Of a stretch of 64,000 nt of DNA, positions 37,930 to 59,186 are shown one piece after another (the stretch's first letter is position 1; each line of letters opens with the position of its first letter). The notes beneath the pieces were generated by a model. That model had not been told where the DNA came from and searched no databases. It saw only the letters and a program-made list of their open reading frames with translations. Source of the stretch: Mesorhizobium sp. ZC-5 (GTDB lineage: Bacteria; Pseudomonadota; Alphaproteobacteria; Rhizobiales; Rhizobiaceae); assembly GCF_025753855.1 (NCBI RefSeq), contig NZ_JAOWPT010000002.1, positions 434,001 through 498,000 of the forward strand, read 5' to 3'. The position numbers were made by a program, and so were the translations under genes.

Positions 37930-37932
37930 TTT

Positions 37933-37954
37933 TGACCAATTCGTATATTGATTT
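37933..37954. promoter_or_regulatory. GntR operator, regulator side
   Basis: TGACCAAT and ATTGATTT, separated by 6 bases, form an imperfect copy of the perfect palindrome at 38062 with the same 8-6-8 spacing. It directly precedes the regulator start codon. Confidence 0.65.
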
Positions 37955-38038
37955 CAGATTCCGGTGTTAAAGTGATTGACGGGAGCCGTCAACTGTTGGG
38001 TTTCGGCGTCAACCGGTCATTTATGCCCTAGTTTGGCC

Positions 38039-38050
38039 TTGACCAATCAG
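38039..38050. promoter_or_regulatory. GntR half-site
   Basis: TTGACCAATCAG repeats the left half of the operator 22 bases (about two helical turns) before the same half in the site at 38062, so an extra dimer could bind cooperatively. Confidence 0.4.
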
Positions 38051-38061
38051 CGGTTTCTATC

Positions 38062-38083
38062 TAACCAATTAGGATATTGGTTA
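38062..38083. promoter_or_regulatory. GntR operator, ABC operon side
   Basis: TAACCAAT and ATTGGTTA are perfect inverted arms around TAGGAT. The site ends 21 bases before the start of the binding-protein gene and would block transcription when bound. Confidence 0.75.
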
Positions 38084-38104
38084 TAAGAACGGGAGGAAAA
38101 ACAA

Positions 38105-39100: not shown

Positions 39101-39111
39101 CCGGCTGCCAG

Positions 39112-39939: not shown

Positions 39940-39940
39940 G

Positions 39941-40744
39941 ATGCGCGACGCGGTTTTGCGAAACGGACTGAAGCCGATACCCGCAGCGGTCGATTCGATC
40001 GTGGAGGTACGAGGGATTTCAAAAACCTACGGGGATGTCGAGGCCCTGCGCGGCATCGACCTCGACTTTCCCAGGGGCAAGCTGACCAGCCTGCTCGGGC
40101 CAAGCGGCTGCGGGAAGACAACCCTTCTCAAGATCATAGCCGGCCTCATAAGCGCCGATGCCGGGACGATCACGGTGGACGGGAAGCAGGTCAGCGCGCC
40201 CGGACCGGAACGCGCCTTCGTCTTCCAGGATTTCGCCCTGATGCCGTGGGCAACGGTAATGCGCAACGTGGCGTTCGGCCTCGAACTGCGCGGTATCGGC
40301 AAGGCTGAACGGGAGGACAAGGCGCGTCACTACATCGCCGAGGTCGGCCTCGCCGGTTTCGAAAACAAATATCCTCACGAACTCTCGGGCGGCATGCGTC
40401 AGCGGGTCGGCCTGGCACGGGCGCTGTCGGTGGATGCCGACGTGCTGCTCCTCGACGAACCGTTTTCGGCCGTCGACGAACAGAACCGACGCAAATTCCA
40501 GGAAGACCTGATCCGGTTGCGCACCACCCAGAACAAGACGTTCATCTTTGTGACGCACTCCATTGAGGAGGCGGTCTACATCTCCGACCGCATCGTGCTT
40601 CTGTCGCCGAGGCCGGGCCGGGTTTCCCGCATCATCGAGCCGGAAGTTGACCGCTCCGGCGATCCCGAACGCATACACCGCGACAAGCACTATCTCGATA
40701 CGGTCGACGAGATATGGCAGGGGCTGAAGCAATATGTCGACTGA
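39941..40744 (+). CDS. ABC transporter ATP-binding protein (SsuB/TauB-like)
   Basis: A 267-residue ATPase. Walker A is GPSGCGKTT near residues 55-63, the signature LSGGMRQRVGLARAL, and Walker B VLLLDEPFSAVD. The start at 39941 is one base after the permease stop and uses the GAGAGGGA site before it. It energises the importer formed with the two flanking permeases. Confidence 0.92.
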   Translation: MRDAVLRNGLKPIPAAVDSIVEVRGISKTYGDVEALRGIDLDFPRGKLTSLLGPSGCGKTTLLKIIAGLISADAGTITVDGKQVSAPGPERAFVFQDFALMPWATVMRNVAFGLELRGIGKAEREDKARHYIAEVGLAGFENKYPHELSGGMRQRVGLARALSVDADVLLLDEPFSAVDEQNRRKFQEDLIRLRTTQNKTFIFVTHSIEEAVYISDRIVLLSPRPGRVSRIIEPEVDRSGDPERIHRDKHYLDTVDEIWQGLKQYVD

Positions 40745-40753
40745 GGCTCGGTC

Positions 40754-41509
40754 ATGAAGATTTTCGGTTATCGCGTGCCGATGATGGCATCGTTGCTCGT
40801 GTGGTGCATCGTCTGGGAGATCGTCGGGCGGCTCGACCTGATGCTGATGCTGCCGCCTTTCAGCGACGTGCTAGCTGCCGCCTTCGAACTCGTGCAGACA
40901 CCGTCCTGGCAGGGCGCGACGGTTACCACCCTTCGCGCCTTCGTCACCGGCATGGTCCTGGCGATCGCCGTCGGCATACCTCTCGGCATCTTGATGGGAC
41001 GTTCGAAGATTGCCGACGATCTGCTCGGCATGTGGGTCAACATCTTTTCCAGCGCGCCGCTCTCCGCGATCGTGCCGGTGCTGATGATCCTGTTCGGCTT
41101 CGGCGAGAAGACGATCGTGGCGGCGGTGTTCCTGTTTGCGATCTGGATCATCGTGCTCGATACCCGAGCCGGCGTGCGCCACATCTCGCCGTCGCTGATC
41201 GAGATGGCGCGCTCCTACGGAGCTTCGCGCCGCGTCCTTTATGCCAAGATCATCCTTTGGGCCGCACTCCCGGAAATCCTAGCCGGAATCCGGCTTGGCC
41301 TCATTCGCGGCGTAAAGGGCGTGGTCATCGGTCAGCTGCTCGTCGCCATCGTCGGTTACGGCGCGCTTTTCGAAACCTTCTCACGGAATTTCCGCATGGC
41401 CGAGTTCTGGGCCCTCACCATCATCCTTTTCGCATTCGCTCTGGTGATCGCCGAGCTGATCGAACGGGCAGAAGCCAAAGTCGAATATTACGCAGGAGCT
41501 AGACAGTGA
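40754..41509 (+). CDS. ABC transporter permease (SsuC/TauC-like), second
   Basis: A 251-residue inner-membrane protein with about six membrane segments. The ATPase-contact loop is SPSLIEMARSYGASRRVLYA. It differs clearly from the first permease of the operon, so this is not a recent duplication. Its stop overlaps the GTG start of the hydrolase gene. Confidence 0.9.
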   Translation: MKIFGYRVPMMASLLVWCIVWEIVGRLDLMLMLPPFSDVLAAAFELVQTPSWQGATVTTLRAFVTGMVLAIAVGIPLGILMGRSKIADDLLGMWVNIFSSAPLSAIVPVLMILFGFGEKTIVAAVFLFAIWIIVLDTRAGVRHISPSLIEMARSYGASRRVLYAKIILWAALPEILAGIRLGLIRGVKGVVIGQLLVAIVGYGALFETFSRNFRMAEFWALTIILFAFALVIAELIERAEAKVEYYAGARQ

Positions 41510-42210
41510 ACATGCATGGAACGGCCTCAAACTATGTGATCGAACCGCTCTCCATCCCGGCGATACCGGTGGTGGGGACCGACAAGCTGTTTCCGGTGCA
41601 TCGGGTGTATTGCGTCGGCCGGAACTATGCCGCGCATGCCGTCGAAATGGGGCATGACCCGAACAAGGAACCGCCATTCTTCTTCCAGAAGAATCCCGAC
41701 AATCTGGATACAAGCGGCGCGTTTCCCTATCCATCCGCTTCGAGCGACGTCCATCACGAGATCGAGATGGTGGTCGCGCTGAAGAGCGGCGGCACCGACA
41801 TTCCTGTCGAGAAGGCGCTGGACTGCGTCTACGGCTACGGCGTCGGCCTCGATATGACGCGCCGCGACCTGCAGGGGAAAGCCAAGGACATGGGCCGCCC
41901 CTGGGAAGTCGGCAAGGCGTTCGAAGCCTCGGGCCCATGCACCGCGCTTGTTCCAGCGAGCACGATCGGCCATCCCATCCAGGGCGAGATCTGGCTCGAC
42001 GTCAACGGCACGCGCAGGCAGACGGGCGACCTCAACCAGATGATCTGGAAGGTGCCTGAAATGATCAGCTACCTGTCTGGGCTGTTCACGCTGATGCCCG
42101 GCGACATCATCATGTCAGGCACGCCATCGGGCGTCGCCGCCGTCAACCGCGGCGATGTACTCAAGGGCCATGTCGACGGGGTAGGTGACATTGAGGTCCG
42201 TGTTGTCTGA
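41506..42210 (+). CDS. fumarylacetoacetate hydrolase family protein
   Basis: A 234-residue FAH-fold enzyme. The N-terminal HRVYCVGRNYAAHAVEMG and metal-site residues Glu-x-Glu in HHEIEMVVALK plus Asp in YGVGLDMTRRDLQ are all present. The C-terminus PGDIIMSGTPSGVAAV is the family signature. Relatives cleave acylpyruvates or decarboxylate/hydrate keto acids in aromatic catabolism, using Mg or Mn. The GTG start overlaps the permease stop (GTGA) after AGGAG. Being inside the transporter operon, it probably acts on the imported compound or a product. Confidence 0.9.
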   Translation: MNMHGTASNYVIEPLSIPAIPVVGTDKLFPVHRVYCVGRNYAAHAVEMGHDPNKEPPFFFQKNPDNLDTSGAFPYPSASSDVHHEIEMVVALKSGGTDIPVEKALDCVYGYGVGLDMTRRDLQGKAKDMGRPWEVGKAFEASGPCTALVPASTIGHPIQGEIWLDVNGTRRQTGDLNQMIWKVPEMISYLSGLFTLMPGDIIMSGTPSGVAAVNRGDVLKGHVDGVGDIEVRVV

Positions 42211-43566: not shown

Positions 43567-43592
43567 GCGCTACCTTAGGCTGAAGGTAGCGC
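43567..43592 (-). terminator. hairpin at the end of the molybdenum hydroxylase operon
   Basis: Perfect 10-base arms GCGCTACCTT and AAGGTAGCGC around a 6-base loop lie 4 bases after the amidohydrolase stop. There is no T run, so it may end transcription weakly or protect the 3' end of the message. Confidence 0.5.
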
Positions 43593-43596: not shown

Positions 43597-44481
43597 CTAC
43601 AGCCTGTAAACCGTGGTGGCGTTGTCCGCGAGGATCGCCCTTTGCGTTGCCTCCGGATAGGACGACAGGGCATCCTGGTATGCGGCGACAAGATCGGCGT
43701 AACCGGTCCACAGCTTTTCGATGGGAAAGTTGCTGCCGAAGAGGCAGCGCTTGTCGCCAAAAATCGCGATCGTTTCGTGCACCACGTCGGCGATATGCGC
43801 GGCATCGTTGCGATGGATGAAGGTGCCGAGCCCGGAAAGCTTGGAGACGATGTTCGGCTGCTCCGCCAGTCGCTTCATGCCGTCCCGCCATGCCGCCCGG
43901 CCCGGTTCGGAGAGATCTTCGAGCATGCCCGCGTGCAGCAGGATGAAGGTGATGTCGGGATTGTCCGAAGCGAGTTTCGCCGCTCCCGCCATTTGCGACG
44001 TGAAGACCTGCAGGTCGAAAGACCAGCCATGATCCGCAACCAGGCGGAGGTTGTCGCGGAAGCGCGTCTCGTCGAAAATATCCGGGCTGGCGGCGAAACG
44101 ATACATTTCGTTTTCGTGCCAGTGGAGCTGCATGCGGATACCGCGCATCAGCGGGAAGGCCGCCTGCTTTTTCAGCGTCTCGCCGGCGTTTCCGTCAAGA
44201 AGGTCGGCATAACCTACAATGGCGTGCGGCCAGCCATGCCCGTCCGCAACGCTCTGCACCCAAGCCACCTCGTCGACGGCGCCGGTTTTCGCCCAGTTGG
44301 TCTGCACATAGACGGATTTCTCGACGCCTGAACCGGCGATATCGGCCAGGAATTCTTCGATCGGATAATCGCGGCGTATCGCATCGTAGGGACCGAAGAT
44401 GCGCGGCACCATCGGCCCCTGCAGCCACGGCAGGTCGGCCTGCCGCCAGATGTGATGATGGGCATCGACAATTCCGGTCAT
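43597..44481 (-). CDS. amidohydrolase family protein (fuconolactonase-like TIM barrel)
   Basis: A 294-residue metal-dependent hydrolase of the amidohydrolase-2 group. It starts TGIVDAHHHIWRQADLPWL, with the H-x-H metal pair. His in LLHAGM and Asp or Asn in LFGSNFPIEK complete the usual site; in many relatives the last motif is GSDxP, here Asn replaces Asp. Relatives are lactonases and decarboxylases. AAGGA precedes the ATG, which overlaps the VWA stop by 4 bases. Last gene of the molybdenum hydroxylase operon. Confidence 0.87.
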   Translation of the reverse strand: MTGIVDAHHHIWRQADLPWLQGPMVPRIFGPYDAIRRDYPIEEFLADIAGSGVEKSVYVQTNWAKTGAVDEVAWVQSVADGHGWPHAIVGYADLLDGNAGETLKKQAAFPLMRGIRMQLHWHENEMYRFAASPDIFDETRFRDNLRLVADHGWSFDLQVFTSQMAGAAKLASDNPDITFILLHAGMLEDLSEPGRAAWRDGMKRLAEQPNIVSKLSGLGTFIHRNDAAHIADVVHETIAIFGDKRCLFGSNFPIEKLWTGYADLVAAYQDALSSYPEATQRAILADNATTVYRL

Positions 44482-45653
44482 GCTGCGATCCTTCCATTTT
44501 GGAACCGGTGGCCGGCCTGGCCGCGTCCCATCCTTTCGGTGGTTTCGAGCCCCACGATCATGCGGTCGAGCGCCGCCAGGCTGCTGCCGTCGCACAGCGC
44601 GTCGAGCAGCGGCAGAACGCCGGCCATGCCGCGCGTCGCCGGCCGGTAGCGCGGATCGGCTGCAAGCGGCGTTGCCCAGATCAGCCGATGGCTGAGGCGG
44701 GCCAGCCGGCCGACCGAATGGATCATCAAGGCGGGATCGCCGCGTTCGAGTCCGTCCGAGAAGATGACCGTCACCGCGCCGCGCACCAGCGCAGCATGCC
44801 GCGACACCGACAGAAACGCATCCAGGGACGTTCCGATCAGCGTGCCGCCGTCGAAGTCGGACACGATGTCCGACAGGCGCTCCAACGCCACGTCCGCACT
44901 GCGATGCTTCAGGATCGAAGTCACGCGCGAGAGCCTTGTTCCGAAGCAGAAGGTCTCGACTTTTGGCAGGCGCCGGGTCGCCAGTTGGGCGAACCGCAAG
45001 GTGAGTTCCGATTGGATTTTCATCGAACCGGACACGTCGATGAGAAAGAGCAGACGCCGTGGTTTTTCCGGCCTGTCTTCTCGCGTCAGGCACAGCGTCT
45101 CGCCAAACGTCCGCCGCGCCGCGCGCGTCGTGCCGGCGAGGTTTATCCGCGTGCCGCGCGACGAGGCGGTCCAGTTCCGCCGCAAGACCTTGGGCATGTC
45201 GTCCAGCCGGCGGCCGAGCCGGGCCAATGCCTCGCGGTCGTCACTGGCCAAGCGCGAAAAGATCTTGCGGTTGCGCAACTCGTCCTCGGATGCGTCCTGT
45301 CCGGCGGCCTCGCCATCGAGAATTCGGGTCAAGGCCTGCTCGCCCCGAGGGTGTGCGGGCCGCGGCGCCCGGTCGTCTTCGGGATCGTTCACCCTTCCGG
45401 AGACCGTCGCTTCGCCGAAGAAATTCTCGAACACCGCATCGAAGACCGGGAAATCCTCTGGCGACCCGGTCAATGTCACCCGTCCTATGCGAGAGAGGTC
45501 GGCGGGACCACTCAGCCTGCATATGGTCACGGCCCTCAGAAAAGCCTTGGCCCGCCCCGGATCCACCATCAGCCCGGCCGCCCGCAGCGCGGCGGGAAAA
45601 CCGGTCAGGAGGTCGGCCGCAATGGAAACGGATTCCTTGATGTTCGCCGTCAC
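44478..45653 (-). CDS. VWA domain-containing protein (CoxE-like)
   Basis: A 391-residue protein. The C-terminal half is a von Willebrand A domain with the metal motif LFLIDVSGSMK and the later VIFSDGLERGD. The N-terminal half has a charged helical region. CoxE-type proteins work with a MoxR/CoxD ATPase to mature molybdenum hydroxylases of the CO dehydrogenase family. The GTG start overlaps the ATPase stop (GTGA), so the two are coupled. Position in the hydroxylase operon supports the maturation role. Confidence 0.88.
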   Translation of the reverse strand: MTANIKESVSIAADLLTGFPAALRAAGLMVDPGRAKAFLRAVTICRLSGPADLSRIGRVTLTGSPEDFPVFDAVFENFFGEATVSGRVNDPEDDRAPRPAHPRGEQALTRILDGEAAGQDASEDELRNRKIFSRLASDDREALARLGRRLDDMPKVLRRNWTASSRGTRINLAGTTRAARRTFGETLCLTREDRPEKPRRLLFLIDVSGSMKIQSELTLRFAQLATRRLPKVETFCFGTRLSRVTSILKHRSADVALERLSDIVSDFDGGTLIGTSLDAFLSVSRHAALVRGAVTVIFSDGLERGDPALMIHSVGRLARLSHRLIWATPLAADPRYRPATRGMAGVLPLLDALCDGSSLAALDRMIVGLETTERMGRGQAGHRFQNGRIAA

Positions 45654-46504
45654 AGGACCGCTGCTTCCTCTATCACCGCGAAGTCCTCCTGGTCCTTGAC
45701 CAGCAATCCGAGCGACCGTTTCAACGCTTCCGGCCACGACGCTCCGTCGCGGTGGAGCACGCCCGCGGCGCGCGCCCAATCGATGGATTCAGCGATGCCT
45801 GGACGCTTGATCAGCGGCAGCCGGCGCACCACCGCGACTGCCTCGACCAGATGCTCGGCGGCTTCAGCGGCGATGCCAGGCGCGTGCAGTTCGATGATGG
45901 CGCGCTCCCGGGCACGCTCCGGATAATCGATCCAGTGATAGAGGCAGCGCCGCCGCAGCGCGTCGTGCAGTTCGCGGGTCCGGTTTGAGGTCAGGATCGT
46001 GATGACCGGCTGGCTGGCCCTCACGGTTCCGATCTCCGGTATGGAGATCTGGAAGTCCGACAGGAACTCAAGCAGGAAAGCTTCGAAAGCGTCGTCGGCG
46101 CGGTCGATCTCGTCGATCAACAGGATGCTCGTTTCCGCTTTGCGGAGCGCCTTCAACAACGGCATCTCGATCAGGAATTTTTCCGCGTAGAGCTCGGACA
46201 TTTCGACACCGCCGCCGCGCTCGGCGACGCGCACCTGAAGCAGCTGGCGCGCATGATCCCAGTCGTAGAGGGCCTTCGTGGCATCGATGCCCTCGTAGCA
46301 TTGAAGCCGGATGCACTGCCGGCCGAGCATGGCCGCCAGCTTGTTGGCGACCTCGGTCTTGCCGACGCCCGGCACCCCTTCGAGCAGCAGCGGCTTGCCC
46401 AGCTCAAGTGCGAGATACAGCGCCGTCACCAGCGTCTCGTCAGCCAGATAGCCCGCCGCGGCGAGCGATGCGTCGAGTTGGTCCTGTGTCAATGGCGACG
46501 GCAT
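45650..46504 (-). CDS. MoxR-type AAA+ ATPase (CoxD-like)
   Basis: A 284-residue AAA+ protein. Walker A is LLEGVPGVGKTEVANKL near residue 45, Walker B ILLIDEIDRADDAFE, sensor 1 ITILTSNRTREL, and arginine finger region DALRRRCLYHW. CoxD-like chaperone ATPases insert sulphur or metal into molybdenum hydroxylases together with a VWA partner, here encoded next with a 4-base overlap. Confidence 0.9.
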   Translation of the reverse strand: MPSPLTQDQLDASLAAAGYLADETLVTALYLALELGKPLLLEGVPGVGKTEVANKLAAMLGRQCIRLQCYEGIDATKALYDWDHARQLLQVRVAERGGGVEMSELYAEKFLIEMPLLKALRKAETSILLIDEIDRADDAFEAFLLEFLSDFQISIPEIGTVRASQPVITILTSNRTRELHDALRRRCLYHWIDYPERARERAIIELHAPGIAAEAAEHLVEAVAVVRRLPLIKRPGIAESIDWARAAGVLHRDGASWPEALKRSLGLLVKDQEDFAVIEEAAVL

Positions 46505-46515
46505 CAGATCGAGCC

Positions 46516-46824
46516 CTAGAACTGCTGCTTCTCCTCGCAGACCATCCGGAAGCGGTTGGAGCAGTGCGCGGCGGCGTCACCGCCGGCCGCCTTGCCGGCA
46601 TCGGTAGCGAAGGCTGCGGCCATGGCGGCCTCGTCGTCGAAATACATTTCGGAAACGCCGTCGAAGGGTGCGTCGGGATTTTCGCTCAGAAGGACGTTCG
46701 ATGTGTATTTCTTAAGGCCGGGCAGGTTCTTGGCGAAGGCGACGTGGTCGACCATGATCCATTGCTTGAAATCGCCGAAGCTCATGTCCGCGCGGCGCTT
46801 CATCAGAGCCATGACCTTGATCAT
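46516..46824 (-). CDS. EthD-like (dimeric alpha/beta barrel) protein
   Basis: A 102-residue protein starting MIKVMALMKRRADMSFGDF, which matches EthD-type ferredoxin-like proteins (KxxMSxxxF). The segment DHVAFAKNLPGLKKY is the typical helix with its histidine. Family members are found in ring-degradation operons as small isomerases or accessory factors. AAGGA precedes the ATG. It lies between the hydroxylase subunits and the maturation genes. Exact role unknown. Confidence 0.8.
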   Translation of the reverse strand: MIKVMALMKRRADMSFGDFKQWIMVDHVAFAKNLPGLKKYTSNVLLSENPDAPFDGVSEMYFDDEAAMAAAFATDAGKAAGGDAAAHCSNRFRMVCEEKQQF

Positions 46825-46856
46825 TTTTTATCCTTTCAACGATGGGGAGGAAGCGG

Positions 46857-47867
46857 TCAGTTCGCGATTCCGCGCAAGGCGTCGAGCCCGCGCAGGATCT
46901 TTTCCGGGGTGAACGGCATCGATGTCACCCGCACACCGCAGGCATCGAAGATCGCGTTGGCGATCGCCGGGATCGGCGAATTCGCCGTCATCTCGCCGAT
47001 GCCCTTGGCGCCATAGGGGCCATTCGAAGACGGCCGCTCTATGATCACCGAGTCCATCTCGGCGATGTCGCCCGGGCCGGGCATCAGATATTGCGAAAAA
47101 TCGGTCGGGCCGTGTGCGCGGTCCGGATAATAAGGCTCGGTCGTCTCGTAGAGCGCATGGCTGATGCCCATCCACGCACCGCCCACGATCTGCTGGTGCG
47201 CCAGCGCCGGATTCATGGCGCGGCCGATTTCGTAGGCGTTGGTCATCTTGAGAACGCGCACCTCGCCGGTCTCGTCGTCGACCTCGACATCTGCCACGGT
47301 GCAGGCATGCGCCTGGCAGGAATCCGGGTCCATCTCGCCGGTTTCAGGGACCACCTCGCTCTTCGGCTTCATGTACATGCCTCGCCCGGAAATGGTCTTG
47401 CCGAGCTTGAAATGAGCGGCGAGAGCCACGTCGACGACCGACATGCCCTTGTCGGGCGCGCCGTTGACATGGATGCGGCCCTTGCCGTCGGTGACGAGAT
47501 CGCCCGGATCGACTTCCAGTTCGGTCGCCGCCACGCTCATCATCACCTCGCGGGCTTCCCGCGCCGCCATCATGATGGCGTTGCCAATGCGGTGGGTGCC
47601 TCGGCTTGCGAAAGTGCCCATGCAGTGCGGCCCGGTGTCGGTATCGGCGGTGTCGATCACCACATTCTCGTACGGCACGCCGAGCGTCTCGGCGGCAATC
47701 TGCGCGCCGACGGTCTTGATGCCCTGGCCAAGATCGACCGAGGAGAGCGTGATAACGAACCCGCCCGTCGTGGTGGCGTGGATCAGCGCTTGGCTGGGGT
47801 CGCCGCCAAGGTTCATGCCCGTCGGATAATTCACAGCGGCGACGCCGCGTCCTTTCAGCCACGCCAT
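46857..47867 (-). CDS. molybdenum hydroxylase, molybdopterin subunit, C-terminal polypeptide
   Basis: A 336-residue protein equal to the C-terminal part of XdhB/CoxL-type large subunits. It starts GRGVAAVNYPTGMNLGGDP and has the cofactor segments SSVDLGQGIKTV and FASRGTHRIGNA. PYGAKGIGEMTANSP supplies the catalytic Glu that activates water. It begins one base after the stop of the N-terminal polypeptide and has its own GGGAGG site six bases upstream, so the split looks designed, not a frameshift. Together the two chains total the normal large-subunit length. Confidence 0.9.
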   Translation of the reverse strand: MAWLKGRGVAAVNYPTGMNLGGDPSQALIHATTTGGFVITLSSVDLGQGIKTVGAQIAAETLGVPYENVVIDTADTDTGPHCMGTFASRGTHRIGNAIMMAAREAREVMMSVAATELEVDPGDLVTDGKGRIHVNGAPDKGMSVVDVALAAHFKLGKTISGRGMYMKPKSEVVPETGEMDPDSCQAHACTVADVEVDDETGEVRVLKMTNAYEIGRAMNPALAHQQIVGGAWMGISHALYETTEPYYPDRAHGPTDFSQYLMPGPGDIAEMDSVIIERPSSNGPYGAKGIGEMTANSPIPAIANAIFDACGVRVTSMPFTPEKILRGLDALRGIAN

Positions 47868-47868
47868 C

Positions 47869-49230
47869 TCACGCCTCCCGCTCGAAAGAAGACATCTTTG
47901 CGAAACGCGGCGCCAACGTCGTGCCGGTCTGGTGGGCAGCCGCCTGGATGACTTCGACAAGGGCGGCACCTTCGACCTTCTTGCGATGCGCCTTCATGTC
48001 GCCGTCGCGGTAGGCGTTGATCAGGCGAAGCTCCATGGGATCCATGTTGAGGTAGCGCGCCACCTGGTCCATCTGCGATTCCAGCGCGAAATCGCCGATC
48101 GTCACGCCGAAGCCGCGCATCGCCGATGACGGCGTGCGGTTGGTGTAGACGCAGTAGGCATCGACATGGACGTTGGGGATGGAATACGGCCCCGGCATGT
48201 GCGCCGCCGCCTTGGTGGTGCCGTAGGTCGAGTGGCGGCAATAGGCGCCCGCGTCGACGTAGAGCGTTATTTTCCGCGCAACGATGCGCCCGTCGTTCAT
48301 CACGCCGTCCTTGATGTAGAGGCGTTCGGATGCGCGCGGCGACGAAACCTGCATCTCCTCGGCGCGCGAGTAGGCATACTTCACCGGCCGGTTGGTCAGC
48401 ATCGCACCCAGTGCCGCGATCGGCTCGACGATGACGTCCACCTTGCCGCCGAACCCGCCGCCGACAGTGCCTCCGACCAGCCGCAGCTTGTTGAACGGCA
48501 CGCCGAGGATCAGCGCCATGTTGTCGAGCGTGAAATAGAGCGCCTGCGTGTTGGAGTACACTGTGACGCGGCCGTTGCCTTCGGGCTTCGCCGTGCAGCC
48601 GGTTGTCTCGGTCGGCGCGTGTTCGATCGGCGCGGATTCGTAACGATGCTCGATGATGTGGTCGGCTGCCGCAAAACCCTTGTCGACATCGCCGAAACGG
48701 ATGCGCCGACAGTTGTGGCCCTCATAGACGAAATAGTTGGTGCCGTGCTGCTTGAACGGCGTCGAGGTCATCGCCTCCTCGACATCGAAGATGGGTGGCA
48801 GGTCCTCGTAGTCGACGACCACGCGGCGGGCGCCTTCAAGGGCCGCCTGCGGCGTCTCCGCCAGCACCGCGCAGATCTGCTCGCCCATGAACAGCACGCG
48901 GTCCTCCGGCAACACCGGCTCGTCGTCGGGACCGACACCGATCAGCTTTAGGATGGTGTACCAGTTGTTGGGCACGTCCTTGTGGGTGAGCACGCGAACC
49001 ACGCCCGGCACGTTCATGGCCGCGTCTGTGTTGATGTCCTTGATCAGTGCGTGATGGCGCGTCGACCGGACCATCTTCAAATGCAGCGTGTTGGGAAACG
49101 TCACGTCCTCGTAGAACTGCGTCTGTCCGGTGACATGACCGCGCGCGTCGGCGCGCTGCACGCTTTCACCGACGACCGAGAGTTCGGCCTCGCGTTCCTT
49201 GGTGAAAAAGCTGGTGTCGATCTTTTCCAT
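47869..49230 (-). CDS. molybdenum hydroxylase, molybdopterin subunit, N-terminal polypeptide
   Basis: A 453-residue protein equal to the N-terminal part of XdhB/CoxL-type large subunits. An a/b hammerhead domain lies near residues 20-130 (GESVQRADARGHVTG). The first Mo-binding domain has VGGTVGGGFGGKVD, and SSAMRGFGV is the active-site loop. That loop is of the xanthine/aldehyde/nicotinate type, not the AYRCSFR of CO dehydrogenase. It ends where single-chain homologues continue. GAGGG precedes the ATG. Confidence 0.9.
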   Translation of the reverse strand: MEKIDTSFFTKEREAELSVVGESVQRADARGHVTGQTQFYEDVTFPNTLHLKMVRSTRHHALIKDINTDAAMNVPGVVRVLTHKDVPNNWYTILKLIGVGPDDEPVLPEDRVLFMGEQICAVLAETPQAALEGARRVVVDYEDLPPIFDVEEAMTSTPFKQHGTNYFVYEGHNCRRIRFGDVDKGFAAADHIIEHRYESAPIEHAPTETTGCTAKPEGNGRVTVYSNTQALYFTLDNMALILGVPFNKLRLVGGTVGGGFGGKVDVIVEPIAALGAMLTNRPVKYAYSRAEEMQVSSPRASERLYIKDGVMNDGRIVARKITLYVDAGAYCRHSTYGTTKAAAHMPGPYSIPNVHVDAYCVYTNRTPSSAMRGFGVTIGDFALESQMDQVARYLNMDPMELRLINAYRDGDMKAHRKKVEGAALVEVIQAAAHQTGTTLAPRFAKMSSFEREA

Positions 49231-49240
49231 TGTCTTGCCC

Positions 49241-49735
49241 TCAAGCCGCTTCCGAGCGTTGCGCTGCCTGCATCCGCTTGGCGGCGTCCAGCACCGCGTC
49301 GATGATCGCTTCGTAGCCGGTGCAGCGGCAGATGTTGCCGGAGATGGCGCGGACAGCATCGTCGCGCGATGGATTGGGATTCCTGGCCAGCAGGCCGGCG
49401 GTCGCCATGATCATGCCCGAGGTGCAGAAGCCGCATTGGGTGGCGAAGCCTTCGAGGAATGCTTCCTGGATCGGGTGCAGGCCCTGCATCGGCGTCAGCC
49501 CCTCGATGGTCTCGACCCTTGCGCCCTCGATGGTTTCCACCGGCAGCAGGCAGGACATCATCGCCTTACCGTCGACCAGCACGGTGCAGGTGCCGCAGGC
49601 CCCCTGGTCGCAGCCGCGCCGCGTCCCGGCGAGGCCCTGATTCTCGCGCAGCACCTCGACCAGCGTCGTGCCGGGCGCGACGAGCATCTGGCGCTCAGTG
49701 CCGTTGATGGTGAGCGAGACGACGGAATGTTTCAT
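49241..49735 (-). CDS. molybdenum hydroxylase, [2Fe-2S] subunit
   Basis: A 164-residue iron-sulphur subunit that passes electrons from the Mo site to FAD. The N-terminal plant-type cluster uses GCDQGACGTCTVLVDG plus a later MMSC. The C-terminal helical domain binds the second cluster with ATQCGFCTSGM and GNICRCTGY. The start MKHSVVS is chosen for its GGGAGGG site; a longer frame to 49777 is not supported. Ends 10 bases before the N-terminal Mo polypeptide. Confidence 0.94.
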   Translation of the reverse strand: MKHSVVSLTINGTERQMLVAPGTTLVEVLRENQGLAGTRRGCDQGACGTCTVLVDGKAMMSCLLPVETIEGARVETIEGLTPMQGLHPIQEAFLEGFATQCGFCTSGMIMATAGLLARNPNPSRDDAVRAISGNICRCTGYEAIIDAVLDAAKRMQAAQRSEAA

Positions 49736-49789
49736 GGCTACCCTCCCGGTGGCTCTGATTTTCTTGCGCTGGGCCACGTCCGGCCACGC

Positions 49790-50599
49790 CTACTCCCCGA
49801 TCAGCGCGCGCCTGATGTGGACCGGCGCCACCCGCGCCCTGTACCAGGCACTGGCATAGGCGTCGTCGGATGGATCGATGTCGCGGGTCGCCTCTTTGGC
49901 CGCCCGCTCGACGCTGACGCGGTCGAAGGAGTTGCCGCTCAGCGCCTTTTCAACCGAAGCCGCGCGGACAGCGCTTTTCGCCACGCCACCCAGCCCGATG
50001 CTGACGCGGGTCACCCTGCCGGCGGCAGTCTCGACGACGGCCGCGACTGTGACGATCGCCGCGGCGTTGAGCGCCTTGCGTCCTGCCTTGGCAAACTTGA
50101 AGCTGCCGGCTTCCGGCAGCGGGAACGAGACATGGGTGACGATTTCGCCCTGCTTCAGGCCCGACGAAACGACAGTCTCGATCGCTTCGACGCGGGCCGT
50201 CGTGCCGTTCGACACCATGGCACTCGCACCAAGTGCAATGAGGCAGGCGGCGAAGTCGCCATAAGGCTGCTTGACGAACAGATTGCCGCCGACGGTCGCC
50301 ATGTTGCGGATGGTCGGCGAGGCGATGGCGTCGAGCGCGGCGCGCAGGAAAGCCAGTGCGCGCTCGTCCTCGAGTTCGGCAAGCGTCGTTGCCGCACCGA
50401 TCGTGACCACGCCGTCCTTCACATTTACCCCGGTCAGGCCGACATGGCGCAGGCTGACGAGGCTGGTGAAATCGTCGGTGCCGTAGTTCAGCACCGGGAC
50501 CAGGGCGGTCCCGCCGGCGAGGAGCCTCGCGTCGGGCAGCCTGGAGAGTGCGGCATGAGCCTCGGCCAATGAGCCGGGTGTGGCAATCGCTTGAAGCAT
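49790..50599 (-). CDS. molybdenum hydroxylase, FAD-binding subunit
   Basis: A 269-residue FAD subunit. LLAGGTALVPVLNYG and ATVGGNLFVKQPYGD are the two FAD-binding segments of the family. The C-terminal domain (GRVTRVSIGLGGVAKSAVRA) is the CO dehydrogenase flavoprotein C domain. GGAGGAGACG precedes the ATG. First gene of the eight-gene operon, divergent from a GntR gene. Confidence 0.93.
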   Translation of the reverse strand: MLQAIATPGSLAEAHAALSRLPDARLLAGGTALVPVLNYGTDDFTSLVSLRHVGLTGVNVKDGVVTIGAATTLAELEDERALAFLRAALDAIASPTIRNMATVGGNLFVKQPYGDFAACLIALGASAMVSNGTTARVEAIETVVSSGLKQGEIVTHVSFPLPEAGSFKFAKAGRKALNAAAIVTVAAVVETAAGRVTRVSIGLGGVAKSAVRAASVEKALSGNSFDRVSVERAAKEATRDIDPSDDAYASAWYRARVAPVHIRRALIGE

Positions 50600-50653
50600 C
50601 GTCTCCTCCCAGAGATTGTGCGTCCCGGGTCTTTTCGACCTCTTGATTATCTA

Positions 50654-50663
50654 TTATCGATAA
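50654..50663. promoter_or_regulatory. candidate operator between hydroxylase operon and GntR gene
   Basis: TTATCGATAA is a perfect 10-base palindrome in the AT-rich middle of the 150-base divergent interval. It is well placed to control both directions, but no second copy was found. Confidence 0.35.
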
Positions 50664-50749
50664 ATGAGAATCGTTTTGTCAACCGCGGTCCGGGCAAATA
50701 AGATGCTGCGGTGCCAAATACTTAAGCCCGCAAAATCAGCGAAAAGCAG

Positions 50750-51445
50750 ATGAACGAAACACGCTATGTCCAAACTAATATGACGGAAGAAGCGCGGGCA
50801 GACTTCGCCAATGCGCCGCTTCGCCAGAAAATCAAGGAAGCCCTGCTGAGGCGTATCCTGAGCGGGCGCTACGATGCCGGCGAGCGTCTGGTCGAGTTGC
50901 GTATAGCGGAAGAGTTCGGCACCAGCCAGGGTCCGGTGCGCGAAGCGTTGCGGGAACTCGAGGCAACCGGTCTCGTCACCAATATACCGCGCCGTGGCAC
51001 CTATGTTTCGGAAGTCATGGGTGAAGGTCTGCGCGAAATATATACGGTGCGCGGCGCGCTCGAGGAACAGGCGACGCGCATTGCCACGAAGCAGCGCGCC
51101 TGCGATCTCGACCTCCTGCAGCGCGAGGTCGATCTGATGCACCAGTCAGCGGTGGCCGGCGATATCCACGGCGTGATCGAACATTCGGTCACCTTTCACC
51201 GTTCGATCATGGAAGCGGCGAAGAACCGGTTGCTTCTCAACATCTGGCAGTCGCTGCAGATCGAGACCCGCACCACCATCACCATGTTGGTAGAAGGGCT
51301 GGATCTGGTGGAGATCGCCGACAGTCATCAGCCGATCGTCGATGCCATTCGCAGCGGTGATGCCGAGGAGGCTGCGCGCGTCGCCCGCGAGCACCAGGAT
51401 TATTTCGAACGGCTTCCCGTACCAGCCCGCTCGCGCGCCCCCTAA
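50750..51445 (+). CDS. GntR family regulator (FCD subfamily) of the molybdenum hydroxylase operon
   Basis: A 231-residue regulator. The winged helix is LRIAEEFGTSQGPVREALRE (residues 64-83) followed by IPRRGTYVSEV. The FCD domain includes VEHSVTFHRSIMEAAKN-like and ADSHQPIVDAIRSGD segments with metal-site histidines. It is divergent from the hydroxylase operon, its likely target. Its stop overlaps that of the convergent oxidoreductase gene. Confidence 0.88.
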   Translation: MNETRYVQTNMTEEARADFANAPLRQKIKEALLRRILSGRYDAGERLVELRIAEEFGTSQGPVREALRELEATGLVTNIPRRGTYVSEVMGEGLREIYTVRGALEEQATRIATKQRACDLDLLQREVDLMHQSAVAGDIHGVIEHSVTFHRSIMEAAKNRLLLNIWQSLQIETRTTITMLVEGLDLVEIADSHQPIVDAIRSGDAEEAARVAREHQDYFERLPVPARSRAP

Positions 51446-52536
51446 TCGGCCTTGGGGTCTGGCACCACCACCAGTTTGCCGACGAAATCCTTCGCCATGA
51501 AGTCTGTCTGCGCCCGGTGGAACTCTGAGAGCTTGTAGACGCCGCCGACCAGCGGCTTGATCTTGCCCTGCTCGATATAGCGGACGATGCGACGGAAATC
51601 GGCGCGGGTGCCCTGGCTGGAGCCGTGCAGTTGCAACTGTTTCAGATACATGGTCCGGAGATCGAGCTGAACCACCGGTCCGGCGATGGCGCCAGCGGTC
51701 GTGTAGCGGCCTTCAGGCCTGAGGATACGCAGCAGATCGTTGAAGATCTTGCCGCCGACAAGGTCTGCGACGACGTCGATCGGCTGGCCTCCGGTCGCCT
51801 CGTCGACGGCGGCGATCAGGTCGGATACGCCCCGAGTGATGACCGCTTCAGCGCCGAGATCGAGCAATGCCTGCTCCTTGCCGGGACCGACCACCGCGTA
51901 GGGAATGGCGCCACGGGCGCGGGCAAGTTGCACGATGCCGGAACCGACGCCGCCTGACGCACCGGTGACCAGCACGCGCTCACCTTCTTTCAGGCCGGCC
52001 CGTTCCAGCATCTGTTCGCCGGTGAGGTAAGCGCAGCAGAAGGTAGCCAGCTCGATGTCGGTGAGACTGGTGTCGACGACATGGGCGTTTTCAGCCGGCA
52101 GCGCTTGGTATTCGGCATAGCCGCCGTCGCGGCCATGACCCATGTAATCGATGTCGGCGAGGGAATCGTCGTCGCGATTGTAGATCGAAAAATCGACCAT
52201 CACGCGCTCGCCGATTCGGCTCTCCGAAACGCCCTCGCCGACGGCCACGATATGGCCGACCGTGTCCGTTCCCTGGATGCGCGGGAAGGTCAGCGTGTTG
52301 CCCTGACGGCGCCAGGTCGAGACGGCAGCGGCATCTTCCTCCGTGCCGTAGGCGCCTTGGCGCACCCATACATCGGTGTTGTTCATGCCGCAGGCGGTGA
52401 CCTCGACCAGCACCTCGCCTGCTGCCGGAGCCGGCACCGGAACGTCCTGACGGTAGACGAGTTTTTCAAGCCCGCCATGGCCGGTGAGGAGTACGGCGCG
52501 CATTTTCTGGGGAACGGTTTTGGTCATCGCGTTCAT
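51442..52536 (-). CDS. zinc-type alcohol dehydrogenase-like / quinone oxidoreductase family protein
   Basis: A 364-residue MDR-superfamily protein. The N-terminal GroES-like domain includes EVTACGMNNTDVWVRQG, and the Rossmann motif is LVTGASGGVGSGIVQLARA. Structural-zinc cysteines are absent, pointing to the quinone reductase/enoyl reductase branch. I take ATG 52536 (MNAMTKT); ATG 52527 is possible. It starts 9 bases after the aminotransferase stop, so it shares that operon. NADPH-dependent reduction of a carbonyl or enone is expected. Confidence 0.85.
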   Translation of the reverse strand: MNAMTKTVPQKMRAVLLTGHGGLEKLVYRQDVPVPAPAAGEVLVEVTACGMNNTDVWVRQGAYGTEEDAAAVSTWRRQGNTLTFPRIQGTDTVGHIVAVGEGVSESRIGERVMVDFSIYNRDDDSLADIDYMGHGRDGGYAEYQALPAENAHVVDTSLTDIELATFCCAYLTGEQMLERAGLKEGERVLVTGASGGVGSGIVQLARARGAIPYAVVGPGKEQALLDLGAEAVITRGVSDLIAAVDEATGGQPIDVVADLVGGKIFNDLLRILRPEGRYTTAGAIAGPVVQLDLRTMYLKQLQLHGSSQGTRADFRRIVRYIEQGKIKPLVGGVYKLSEFHRAQTDFMAKDFVGKLVVVPDPKAD

Positions 52537-52545
52537 AGGCAACTC

Positions 52546-53928
52546 TCAGATATTGGCGAAGACGCTGTTCACCGCGTCGGCGGTCTTCGAAACGATGATG
52601 TCCGCCTCTTCCCTCGTCAGGCAGAGCGGCGGTGCGAAGCCGAGGATATCGCCCTGCGGCATCGCGCGCCCGATCACGCCGCTTGCCGCTAGTGCCGTTG
52701 CCACTTGCGGGCCGATCTTTTCCGATGCGTCGAAGAACGCGCGTTCATCCTTGTCCGCGACGAATTCCACCGCAGCCAGCATGCCGTCGCCACGCACGTC
52801 GCCGACGTTTTTATGGCCACCGACAGCCTTGGCCAGTTCGGCGCGGAAATAGGCGCCGGTCTCGCCGGCATTCGTCACCAGATCGAGTTCGTCGATCAGT
52901 TCCAGGTTGGCGATACCGGCCGCGGCGCAGATCGGATGCGCCGAATAGGTCCAGCCATGTCCGAGCGAGCCCAGCTTGTCGGACCCTTCGACCAGCACCT
53001 TCCACATGCCATCGGAGACGATGACGCCGGAGAGTGGCGCGTAGGCCGAGGTCAGGCCCTTGGCGATGGTGATGAGGTCGGGTTTCATGCCGTAGTGGTC
53101 GGAGCCGAACATGGTGCCGAGCCGGCCGAAGCCGGTCACAACCTCGTCGGCGACCAGCAGCACGTCGTATTTTTTCAGCACCGCCTGGATCTTTTCCCAG
53201 TAGCCTGCCGGCGGCGGCACGATGCCGCCTGTGCCGAGGATCGGCTCGCCGATGAAGGCGGCGACGGTTTCCGGACCTTCGGCCAGGATCATTTCCTCAA
53301 GCTTGTCGGCGCAATGCTGCGAGAACTGTTCTTCGCTCATCGAGCGGTCGGCGCGGCGGAAATAATAAGGCGCTTCCGTATGCAGGATCGGCGCCCGCGG
53401 CAGGTCGAAGGCGTTGTGGAAAAGCTCGAGCCCGGTCAGCGAACCGGTCATGACGCCCGAGCCGTGATAGCCGCGCCAGCGCGAGATGATCTTCTTCTTC
53501 TCCGGCCGGCCAAGCACGTTGTTGTAGTACCAGATCAGCTTGATGTTGGTTTCGTTGGCGTCCGATCCGGACAGGCCGAAATAGACTCTGGACATGTCCT
53601 CAGGCGCGCGGTCAATGATCATCTTGGCGAGCGTGATCGACGCTTCCGTGCCATGGCCGACATAGGCGTGGTAATAGGCGAGTTCCTTCGCCTGTTCAGC
53701 GATTGCATCGGCAATCTTCTGACGGCCGTAACCGACATTGACGCAATAAAGCCCGGCAAAGGCGTCCAGGCTGCGACGACCGCTGGTATCGGTGATGTAC
53801 ACGCCCTCGCCGCCCGCGATGACCCGCGTCGGTGATTCGCCGCGTGCATGCGTGCCCATATGGGTCGACGGATGGAAAAAGTGGTCACGGTCCCAGGCGG
53901 TAAGTTCGTTCGAGCGGTCGAGCATCAT
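52546..53928 (-). CDS. class III aminotransferase (omega-amino acid type)
   Basis: A 460-residue PLP enzyme. It has FAGLYCVNVGYGRQKIADAI near residue 57 and FGLSGSDANETNIKL for phosphate binding. VLLVADEVVTGFGRLG carries the PLP-ring Asp, and LITIAKGLTSAYAPLSG the Schiff-base Lys. Relatives transfer terminal amino groups of omega-amino acids or diamines to pyruvate or 2-oxoglutarate, giving semialdehydes. A semialdehyde dehydrogenase is encoded directly upstream, fitting that pairing. Confidence 0.9.
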   Translation of the reverse strand: MMLDRSNELTAWDRDHFFHPSTHMGTHARGESPTRVIAGGEGVYITDTSGRRSLDAFAGLYCVNVGYGRQKIADAIAEQAKELAYYHAYVGHGTEASITLAKMIIDRAPEDMSRVYFGLSGSDANETNIKLIWYYNNVLGRPEKKKIISRWRGYHGSGVMTGSLTGLELFHNAFDLPRAPILHTEAPYYFRRADRSMSEEQFSQHCADKLEEMILAEGPETVAAFIGEPILGTGGIVPPPAGYWEKIQAVLKKYDVLLVADEVVTGFGRLGTMFGSDHYGMKPDLITIAKGLTSAYAPLSGVIVSDGMWKVLVEGSDKLGSLGHGWTYSAHPICAAAGIANLELIDELDLVTNAGETGAYFRAELAKAVGGHKNVGDVRGDGMLAAVEFVADKDERAFFDASEKIGPQVATALAASGVIGRAMPQGDILGFAPPLCLTREEADIIVSKTADAVNSVFANI

Positions 53929-53949
53929 TCTACTCCGGATTTGAACTGG

Positions 53950-55443
53950 TCAGGCTGCGTCGAGGCAGAGATATTTGAGGTCGGTGAAGGCTTCGAGGCC
54001 GTGGCGCGATCCTTCGCGCCCGATGCCGGACTGCTTCACGCCACCGAACGGGATTGGTGCGCCGGTGATCTTCACGCGGTTGATCGCCACCATTCCGTAT
54101 TCGAGTGCGCGACCCATGCGCAACTGGCGGGAGCCGCCTTCGGTGACCACATAGGCAACGAGACCGTATTCGGTGTCGTTAGCCCGCGTCACGACTTCCT
54201 CTTCCGTGTCGAACGGCGTGACTGCGGCTACCGGCCCGAAAGTCTCTTCGCGCATGATCAGGGCATCGGCGGGAACATCGACAAGCAGCGTCGGCTCGTA
54301 GAACAGCTTGCCGGCCGGGTGCAGCTTGCCGCCGGTCAGGCAGCGGGCGCCCCGCTTCGTTGCATCGGTGACGTGTTCCTCGACCTTGGCGATGGCCCGG
54401 TCATGCATGAGCGGACCGATATCGATGTCTTCGTTCAGGCCGGCGCCAACCTTGAGCGTGGCGATCTTTTTGGCGTAGGCATCGCAGAACGCGTCGTAGA
54501 TGCCGCGCTGCACATAGATGCGGTTCGCCGCGAGGCAGTCCTGACCGGATGTGGCGAACTTCGCGTCGATCGCGACGGCCACGGCTTTATCGAGATGGGC
54601 ATCGTCAAAGACGATCAGCGGTGCATGACCACCGAGCTCCATGACCAGCCGCTTCATCGTCGGGGCGCATTGCGCGGCGATCAGCTGGCCGACCTCGGTC
54701 GATCCGGTGAAGCTCATGGCGCGGACGCGGTTGTCCTCGCACATGCGGCCGACGATCGTCGAAGCATTGCCGGTAACGATGTTGAAGACACCGGCGGGCA
54801 GGCCGGCGCGTTCGCCGAGTTCGGCCAGGGCCAGCGCCGAAAGCGGTGTTTCGGAGGAAGGATGCGCCACGATCGTGCAGCCTGCGGCGAGCGCCGCCGC
54901 GGCCTTGCGGGTCAGCATCGCCGACGGAAAATTCCACGGCGTCACCACGCCGACCACGCCGAGCGCCTCGCGCCGCACGATCATCTCGGTTTCCGGCAGG
55001 TGACTGGTCACGCTTTCGGCGTTCAGCCGTCTGGCTTCCTCGGCGTACCACTCGACGAAGGACGCCGCGTAGTCGATTTCTCCTCGCGATTCCGCCAGCG
55101 GCTTGCCTTGCTCCAGCGTCATCAGCAACGCCAGGTCCTGCTTGGCCGCCACGATCAGGTCGAACCATTTTCGCAGGATTTTTCCACGCTCCTGCGGCAG
55201 CAGGGCTTTCCATTGCGGCAGTGCGCGGGATGCGGCGTCGATGGCGGTTGTCGTCTGCGCCGCGTCGAGCGATGCCACCCAGGCGACCGTCTCGCCATTG
55301 GCCGGGTCCCGCACCTCGAATGTGCGGCCTTCGTCGCCGGCCGTCCAATGCCCGTCGACATAGGCAAGTTCACGCAGCAACCGGCGATCGGCGAGCCTGG
55401 ACAGGCCGTCGTCGCGTTGGGGTCGGGCGAAATGTACTGACAT
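53950..55443 (-). CDS. NAD(P)-dependent succinate-semialdehyde dehydrogenase family protein
   Basis: A 497-residue aldehyde dehydrogenase of the GabD group. GVVGVVTPWNFPSAMLTRK lies near residue 155. FTGSTEVGQ is the NAD turn, MELGGHAPLIVF holds the general-base Glu, and SGQDCLAANRIYVQ the catalytic Cys. Succinate semialdehyde or a related omega-semialdehyde is the likely substrate. GGAGG precedes the ATG. First gene of the three-gene operon with the aminotransferase and oxidoreductase. Confidence 0.9.
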   Translation of the reverse strand: MSVHFARPQRDDGLSRLADRRLLRELAYVDGHWTAGDEGRTFEVRDPANGETVAWVASLDAAQTTTAIDAASRALPQWKALLPQERGKILRKWFDLIVAAKQDLALLMTLEQGKPLAESRGEIDYAASFVEWYAEEARRLNAESVTSHLPETEMIVRREALGVVGVVTPWNFPSAMLTRKAAAALAAGCTIVAHPSSETPLSALALAELGERAGLPAGVFNIVTGNASTIVGRMCEDNRVRAMSFTGSTEVGQLIAAQCAPTMKRLVMELGGHAPLIVFDDAHLDKAVAVAIDAKFATSGQDCLAANRIYVQRGIYDAFCDAYAKKIATLKVGAGLNEDIDIGPLMHDRAIAKVEEHVTDATKRGARCLTGGKLHPAGKLFYEPTLLVDVPADALIMREETFGPVAAVTPFDTEEEVVTRANDTEYGLVAYVVTEGGSRQLRMGRALEYGMVAINRVKITGAPIPFGGVKQSGIGREGSRHGLEAFTDLKYLCLDAA

Positions 55444-55568
55444 GGCAGGCCTCCGCATTGTTCATACGAGAGCCTATTCAAACCCGGTGGAGAGAGGGGC
55501 TGTTTCGCGTGGCTTCGGCGGAGAGACTGCCTAAATCCTGGCAGTTGGATAGAGAGATTGTCTATGGC

Positions 55569-57940: not shown

Positions 57941-58061
57941 GATATCCCTCCTGTGCTGTTGGGGGCGATTTGGGCTTCGACCGGAGCCGAAGGTTTTCGA
58001 TGCTCTTTCAAGGCGTCGGACCGTTGCTTCGTGAGCGGCGCGATCCGATGGTGAGCCGCCG

Positions 58062-59152: not shown

Positions 59153-59186
59153 TGACCACTCCTGTTTTTGTGGACGCGCCTTCGGT

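What the first reader, a model, noticed from the sequence alone, without database searches (positions are those of the whole stretch)
43597..50599. Eight-gene operon: four-polypeptide molybdenum hydroxylase with EthD-like protein, CoxD/CoxE maturation pair and amidohydrolase
Seen: FAD, 2Fe-2S and two Mo-subunit polypeptides, EthD-like, AAA+, VWA and amidohydrolase genes, all on one strand. Gaps run from 4-base overlaps to 54 bases, with a hairpin at the end and a divergent GntR regulator. Known: CoxD/CoxE-type proteins mature CO dehydrogenase-family enzymes. The active-site loop (SAMRGFG) is not that of CO dehydrogenase. Inference: a dedicated hydroxylase for an N-heterocycle or aromatic compound, followed by hydrolysis by the amidohydrolase, with EthD as an auxiliary step. 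I cannot name a characterised system with exactly this gene set.
Basis: partly seen in the sequence, partly recalled or inferred. Interest (0 to 1): 0.75.

Follow-up and report, generated by a model that had tools for sequence, protein, structure and literature searches.

The report
Widespread uncharacterised molybdenum-hydroxylase catabolic operon
This is a real, regulated block of eight genes, with relatives from soil bacteria to a salt-loving archaeon, that probably oxidises and then opens a still unknown ring-shaped compound; its core enzyme type is known, but the family looks unstudied and has a small helper protein that different lineages replace with other ones.

Summary
In detail: eight contiguous minus-strand genes (43597-50599), gaps of -4 to +54 bases, a divergent GntR/FCD gene and a terminal hairpin. 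The four-polypeptide core is a known kind: both Mo halves match the split subunits of Eubacterium barkeri nicotinate dehydrogenase (PDB 3hrd) best, and the split is natural (0 of 91 loci fused).
The operon is conserved in Alphaproteobacteria and Actinobacteria (Solirubrobacter included), with reduced forms in Chloroflexi and a haloarchaeon. I add: (1) a likely operator, TATCGATA, in 55 of 63 GntR-FAD intergenic regions (shuffles: mean 0.16, max 2); its window form TTATCGATAA occurs once in the 6.34-Mb assembly and overlaps the -10 box; (2) an invariant signature (GGFGGKVD, AMRGFG, 100 of 100 loci) without the Glu802/Arg880 pair of xanthine dehydrogenase; (3) a swap slot: of 79 evaluable loci each has at most one of four small-protein types (EthD 28, YciI 23, SRPBCC 18, ABM 6, none 4).
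Best reading: an inducible catabolic operon; the hydroxylase product is handled by the small protein and opened by a hydrolase (COG3618-like, or a cyclase). Substrate unknown; lactam and lactone routes both remain open. Ten searches of an open-licence library found no description.

The parts
50750..51445 (+). divergent GntR/FCD regulator
   Evidence: Pfam GntR + FCD; a divergent GntR stands before FAD in 52 of 79 evaluable loci
50654..50663 (.). proposed operator TTATCGATAA, overlapping the -10 box of the operon promoter
   Evidence: only exact copy in the assembly
50653..50682 (-). sigma70-like promoter TTGACA-18-GATAAT
   Evidence: pattern match only, no excess over shuffles in the region
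49790..50599 (-). FAD subunit (NdhF/CoxM-like)
   Evidence: PF00941, PF03450
49241..49735 (-). [2Fe-2S] subunit (NdhS/CoxS-like)
   Evidence: PF00111, PF01799
47869..49230 (-). Mo subunit, N-half (NdhL-like), with GGFGGKVD, Lys340, SAMRGFG
   Evidence: PF01315, PF02738; best PDB 3hrd_A E 1.6e-68; signature invariant
46857..47867 (-). Mo subunit, C-half (NdhM-like), carries the GIGE motif of the catalytic Glu (motif recalled)
   Evidence: PF20256; best PDB 3hrd_B E 4e-50
46516..46824 (-). EthD-family small protein (swap slot)
   Evidence: PF07110, TIGR02118; His27/Tyr40 align with 2ifx, recalled as 4-methylmuconolactone methylisomerase
45650..46504 (-). MoxR-type AAA+ ATPase (CoxD-like)
   Evidence: PF00004/PF07728; NF047784 MadB E 4.2e-79, 266 bits against a cut-off of 475
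44478..45653 (-). VWA protein (CoxE-like)
   Evidence: PF05762 VWA_CoxE
43597..44481 (-). Amidohydro_2 hydrolase, L-fuconolactonase-like (COG3618, label recalled), Asn at the beta-8 position
   Evidence: PF04909, NF052480 far below cut-off, 4dlf E 5.9e-13, AlphaFold2 model mean pLDDT 94.7
43567..43592 (-). terminal hairpin, 10-bp perfect stem, no T-run

Best explanation
An inducible catabolic operon controlled by its own divergent GntR repressor. Its product is a four-polypeptide (FAD, 2Fe-2S, split Mo) xanthine-oxidase-family hydroxylase of the NdhFSLM type. CoxD/CoxE-like AAA+ and VWA proteins mature (sulfurate) its molybdenum site. The hydroxylase oxidises an electrophilic C-H of a small ring compound. 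The EthD-type barrel protein handles the product, most likely by tautomerising or isomerising it, and the amidohydrolase opens the resulting lactam or lactone. Shown by sequence: the gene set, its co-conservation, the split, the operator candidate, the invariant signature, at most one type of small protein per operon. Inferred: catalysis, maturation role, repression, order of steps. Unknown: the substrate.
For: Conserved gene order and strand. Operator in 55 of 63 intergenics against a shuffle mean of 0.16, one exact copy in the assembly. Split in 91 of 91 loci, 0 fused. Best PDB match of both halves is nicotinate dehydrogenase. GGFGGKVD and AMRGFG in 100 of the 100 loci that hold an N-half, out of 101. 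AmH in 74 of 79 evaluable loci, cyclase instead in 2, which points to a hydrolysis step; three contig-cut Chloroflexi loci (L078, L084, L088) also have the cyclase. At most one of the four small-protein types in 79 of 79, no weak second one. CoxD is reported to be needed for sulfuration of Mo in CO dehydrogenase (abstract and passages of PMC4240915).
Against: No substrate, no expression or enzyme data. AmH has Asn where 4dlf has the beta-8 Asp (63 of 64 rows), so hydrolysis is not certain, though 6uvz also has Asn. CoxD/E are absent from 8 of 79 evaluable loci (7 without XdhC, 1 with it), so they are not required in cis. The divergent GntR is absent from 27 of 79, so the regulation is not shared by the whole family. 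L091 has EthD and also a CoxG-type protein of the SRPBCC superfamily, which my SRPBCC profile does not score. Flanking transporters differ between lineages (by eye). Correlated protein distances (0.77-0.93) have no species-tree control.
Confidence: 0.6

Rival explanations
1. Substrate is an N-heterocycle (pyridine, pyrimidine, imidazole type), hydroxylated next to nitrogen to a lactam that the amidohydrolase opens.
For: Closest solved enzyme is nicotinate dehydrogenase. An NMT1-type ABC transporter with an FAH gene lies beside the operon in the window, and an ABC transporter precedes the archaeal operon.
Against: Arg in NDH and XDH is Lys here and XDH Glu802 is Val. Relatives carry lactonase-type extra genes; the isochorismatase domain there seems to lack the usual Cys (read by eye, motif recalled).
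Confidence: 0.4
2. Substrate is a lactol, cyclic aldehyde or sugar-like compound oxidised to a lactone; AmH is a lactonase, with FAH or HpcH/HpaI aldolase downstream as in sugar-acid pathways.
For: AmH resembles L-fuconolactonase. A metallo-beta-lactamase-fold gene and an SMP-30/gluconolactonase-isochorismatase fusion follow the operon in much of the SRPBCC lineage (Pfam checked in L121; others by eye), with SDR and FAH genes in Yoonia and an HpcH/HpaI gene in L121. FAH homologues lie near the operon in L028, L047, L062, L064, L078, L082, L083, L088, L092 and L101.
Against: AmH is far below the fuconolactonase cut-off (97.5 against 400 bits). No sugar kinase or dehydratase set was seen to be conserved.
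Confidence: 0.3
3. The small protein is not an enzyme of the pathway but a carrier or electron-transfer partner of the hydroxylase (like CoxG, an SRPBCC-type protein linked to membrane-bound CO dehydrogenase).
For: SRPBCC is one of the four alternatives; a true CoxG (PF06240) precedes the operon in L091; particulate CO dehydrogenase is reported absent in the coxG mutant (passage of PMC4240915).
Against: The other three families are dimeric alpha/beta-barrel proteins with isomerase or monooxygenase members (recalled); L091 has EthD as well as CoxG.
Confidence: 0.2
4. Aerobic CO dehydrogenase-like enzyme with a Mo-Cu site.
For: CoxD/CoxE-type genes present.
Against: Loop is AMRGFG, not the CO dehydrogenase loop (recalled); no CoxF among the eight genes, the protein reported to supply copper (passage); CO dehydrogenase models score 172 bits or less against cut-offs of 950 or more.
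Confidence: 0.02

Closest known systems
Eubacterium barkeri nicotinate dehydrogenase NdhF-S-L-M (PDB 3hrd)
   Same: four polypeptides, Mo subunit split between the two Mo-cofactor domains; best PDB match of both halves
   Different: its Arg is Lys340 here, its SAFRGFG is SAMRGFG; the passages seen mention no EthD, CoxD/E or Amidohydro_2 gene with it; NDH is a selenium enzyme (recalled)
Aerobic CO dehydrogenase cluster coxMSLDEFG
   Same: AAA+ and VWA genes next to FAD/FeS/Mo genes
   Different: no CoxF among the eight genes, different active-site loop, split Mo subunit, hydrolase in the operon
Xanthine dehydrogenases (XdhABC, PucCDE)
   Same: domain set and cofactors
   Different: Glu802 and Arg880 equivalents are Val and Lys; far below the xanthine dehydrogenase equivalog cut-offs
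L-fucono-1,5-lactonase (4dlf, name recalled; NF052480)
   Same: Amidohydro_2 family, HxH motif, alignment over 280 residues
   Different: beta-8 Asp replaced by Asn in 63 of 64 rows
EthD family / 4-methylmuconolactone methylisomerase (2ifx, name recalled)
   Same: family TIGR02118/PF07110; His27 and Tyr40 align
   Different: weak similarity (E 0.003); activity untested

Membership tests
Xanthine oxidase family Mo hydroxylases | FAD_binding_5, Fer2/Fer2_2, Ald_Xan_dh_C, MoCoBD_1 and MoCoBD_2 domains | tested here: met
   each above its gathering score
NdhFSLM-type (split Mo subunit) hydroxylases | Mo subunit on two polypeptides divided between MoCoBD_1 and MoCoBD_2 | tested here: met
   0 of 91 loci fused
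NdhFSLM-type (split Mo subunit) hydroxylases | common origin of the split with NdhL/NdhM | not tested
   no tree with NdhL/NdhM was built
Nicotinate dehydrogenase | nicotinate hydroxylation; substrate-pocket residues | tested here: inconclusive
   an Arg of NDH is Lys340 here, invariant; activity not testable here
Xanthine dehydrogenase | Glu802 and Arg880 equivalents (numbers recalled) | tested here: not met
   Val264 and Lys340 in 91 of 91 rows (alignment)
Aerobic CO dehydrogenase | Cys-bearing CoxL loop (recalled) and CoxF | tested here: not met
   AMRGFG in 100 of 100; no CoxF among the eight genes
CoxD/CoxE maturation pair | MoxR-type AAA+ plus VWA_CoxE next to the Mo genes | tested here: met
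   both in 71 of 79 evaluable loci
CoxD/CoxE maturation pair | sulfuration of the Mo site | not testable with these tools
   reported for CoxD with CO dehydrogenase only
Amidohydrolase-superfamily hydrolase | beta-8 catalytic Asp | tested here: not met
   Asn251 in 63 of 64 rows, the other a gap, 26 of 26 in A1; 6uvz also has Asn
EthD family | PF07110/TIGR02118 above cut-off | tested here: met

The most novel reading that the evidence does not exclude
A previously unnamed family of split molybdenum hydroxylases whose pathway has one nearly obligatory small-protein step, for which evolution has recruited four distant or unrelated families (EthD, YciI, ABM, SRPBCC), with at least six switches on the hydroxylase tree, as well as two hydrolase types (AmH, cyclase) and two maturation types (CoxDE, XdhC). 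This would assign one chemistry to several function-unknown small families at once.
Probability: 0.35. Interest if true: 0.7.

Novelty: new variant of a known kind. Interest (0 to 1): 0.5.

Why it matters
EthD, YciI and ABM proteins are common small bacterial proteins of mostly uncertain function. A conserved operon in which they replace one another beside a single enzyme gives a direct way to find what they do. The operator and dedicated regulator also give a handle for finding the inducer, and so the substrate, of a hydroxylase found in several phyla.

Tried and rejected
Mo split as a frameshift or assembly error: rejected, 0 fused in 91 loci. FAH, ABC transporter, desaturase, quinone reductase and aminotransferase neighbours as parts: in the flanks held of the nearest relatives L013-L020 (some of them short) no homologue above 33% identity was seen; FAH recurs near more distant copies and is left open. 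Regulon search for substrate clues: one exact operator in the assembly; the 2-mismatch hits were not followed. Substrate from neighbours: transporters differ by lineage, judged by eye, no answer. Promoter/terminator scan: no excess over shuffles. Literature: searches gave 0 papers; of 30, 34, 50, 51, 78 and 79 I saw listings with titles and starts of abstracts, and none of those titles describes this operon; passages were read of PMC4240915 and PMC10331938 only. A 3-hydroxypyridine dehydrogenase with a separate SRPBCC subunit (recalled) was not in that library.
Full report
What is there. Eight genes lie head to tail on the minus strand from 50599 to 43597, with intergenic distances of 54, 10, 1, 32, 11, -4 and -4 bases. 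Pfam identifies FAD, 2Fe-2S, Mo N-half (Ald_Xan_dh_C + MoCoBD_1), Mo C-half (MoCoBD_2), EthD, AAA+, VWA_CoxE and Amidohydro_2. A GntR/FCD gene is divergent at 50750-51445. A 10-bp hairpin follows the last stop.

The four-polypeptide core. Both Mo halves have E. barkeri nicotinate dehydrogenase (3hrd_A, E 1.6e-68; 3hrd_B, E 4e-50) as best solved relative, ahead of the xanthine dehydrogenases. That enzyme is reported to be made of NdhF, S, L and M, with two Mo polypeptides (passages of PMC10331938). The architecture is therefore a known kind. In our loci the split is conserved: 91 have the halves on separate frames, none fused.

Distribution. Of 61 genomes (own, genus, family, order), 12, own included, have a match at 62% identity or more; the next matches are at 36-38%. 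Of 385 genomes drawn from the class, 8, own included, have one at E 1e-100. The genome-contig scan gave 201 relatives, of which the 80 most similar were kept: Mesorhizobium and other Hyphomicrobiales, Nonomuraea, Asanoa, Actinoplanes relatives, Solirubrobacter, two MAGs labelled Thermomicrobiales, and other Chloroflexi. Plasmid records add Sinorhizobium, Shinella, Yoonia and the haloarchaeon Salinigranum.

Conserved unit. Among the 80 loci, 26 have the full window order and 20 the same with YciI after AmH instead of EthD. Of these, 79 have at least 4 kb before and 4.8 kb after the Mo C-half and were counted: AmH 74, cyclase 2, neither 3; CoxD/E alone 64, CoxD/E and XdhC 7, XdhC alone 1, none 7; divergent GntR 52, without it 27. 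Distance matrices of the operon proteins correlate at 0.77-0.93, without a species-tree control.

Operator. The palindrome TATCGATA occurs in 55 of 63 GntR-FAD intergenic regions, the window included, against a mean of 0.16 and a maximum of 2 in 200 dinucleotide shuffles. Most of the 8 misses show near variants such as CGATAATCGATAA (by eye). In the window TTATCGATAA is at 50654-50663, overlapping the -10 hexamer 50658-50653. It occurs nowhere else exactly in the 6.34-Mb, 68-contig assembly. I read this as the binding site of a dedicated repressor; that is inference. It holds for the EthD and YciI branches. The SRPBCC and ABM branches have no divergent GntR; some have an AraC-type gene upstream (Pfam checked in L112; others by eye) and Solirubrobacter a GntR on the operon's own strand.

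Active site. Aligned with rat xanthine dehydrogenase and NDH, the position of Glu802 is Val264 and that of Arg880 is Lys340 (residue numbers recalled). Val264 and Lys340 are invariant in 91 of 91 rows (the window is there twice), and the motifs GGFGGKVD and AMRGFG occur in 100 of 100 loci with an N-half, the 101st (L117) having none on its contig. A purine hydroxylase is thus unlikely; a substrate with an acidic or polar group for Lys340 is possible. The loop is not that of CO dehydrogenase, and no CoxF is among the eight genes.

The swap slot. Of the 79 loci, 28 have EthD, 23 YciI, 18 SRPBCC, 6 ABM, 4 none, and none has two of these types. Several loci of the SRPBCC branch have two SRPBCC copies. 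A search at full sensitivity found no weak second type within 7 kb, but the SRPBCC profile does not pick up the CoxG-type protein that accompanies EthD in L091, so exclusivity is not strict at the level of the superfamily. Independence would give about 19 loci with two or more types; that figure ignores relatedness. On a FastTree tree of the joined Mo halves (100 rows; 93 with a label, contig-cut loci included; 28 of 96 inner branches weak; the haloarchaeal row on a long branch of unsure place) the four types need at least 6 changes, 10 with none as a state. Both EthD and YciI forms occur in Nonomuraea. EthD, YciI and ABM belong to the dimeric alpha/beta-barrel superfamily (recalled); SRPBCC has another fold, so the slot is defined by co-occurrence, not homology. 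The positions differ: SRPBCC mostly before FAD (after the cyclase in Salinigranum), EthD after the Mo C-half, YciI and ABM after AmH. The simplest reading is one step that several families can do. A carrier or assembly role is the rival.

The hydrolase. AmH is of the Amidohydro_2 family, best solved match 4dlf (E 5.9e-13; recalled as L-fuconolactonase, and the NCBIfam match has that name, far below cut-off). The AlphaFold2 model is confident (mean pLDDT 94.7), but fold comparison was not available. The beta-8 Asp of 4dlf is Asn in 63 of 64 rows. 6uvz, another Amidohydrolase 2, also has Asn, so this need not abolish activity, but it is the main point against a standard hydrolase. A cyclase-family hydrolase (PF04199, checked in L078) stands in for AmH in L091 and in Salinigranum (L099); L078, L084 and L088 have it too but are cut before AmH could be excluded.

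Substrate. In much of the SRPBCC branch a metallo-beta-lactamase-fold protein and an SMP-30/isochorismatase fusion follow the operon (Pfam in L121; others by eye); Yoonia adds SDR and FAH genes and L121 an HpcH/HpaI gene. Those fit a lactone pathway as well as or better than an amide one. The nearest solved enzyme acts on a pyridine. I cannot choose, and give 0.4 to N-heterocycle and 0.3 to lactol/lactone.

Maturation. CoxD is reported to be needed for sulfuration of the Mo site of CO dehydrogenase, and CoxE with CoxF for copper (abstract and passages of PMC4240915). By analogy the AAA+/VWA pair should sulfurate this enzyme. XdhC, the usual chaperone of the family according to the same paper, lies in the operon region in 8 of 79 loci.

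Novelty. Core enzyme: known kind. Gene set, operator and swap slot: not found described in ten searches of an open-licence library. New variant of a known kind.

Noticed in passing
window 37234-42210: A separate cluster: a GntR gene on the minus strand, then on the + strand an NMT1-type binding protein, permease, ATPase, permease and an FAH-family hydrolase, converging on the desaturase gene. FAH genes recur near more distant copies of the hydroxylase operon.
   Followed up: partly
window 51442-55458: Zinc-binding dehydrogenase (Pfam), class III aminotransferase and aldehyde dehydrogenase genes (named by eye) in a row on the minus strand, reading towards the GntR gene.
   Followed up: no
window 56144-63704: MocR-type regulator and a polar amino acid/ectoine-like ABC transporter gene set (names by eye).
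   Followed up: no
L100, L101, L114-L116, L118-L125 upstream of the SRPBCC genes: A long flotillin/SPFH gene, roughly 870-1170 aa by my own gene calls (Pfam checked in L121; annotated so in L101), and in most of them a PEP_hydrolase-like gene, some with a Tm-1-like gene (by eye); an odd, repeated association.
   Followed up: partly
L121:13373-14989: Fusion of SMP-30/gluconolactonase with an isochorismatase domain that appears to lack the usual Cys (motif recalled).
   Followed up: partly
L091:6114-6584: True CoxG (PF06240) just before the cyclase and FAD genes in a Chloroflexi locus that also has EthD.
   Followed up: no
L100, L115, L116, L118-L125 Mo N-half: N-half of about 530-585 aa instead of about 455: an extra stretch of about 100 residues, unidentified; gene starts are my own calls.
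   Followed up: no
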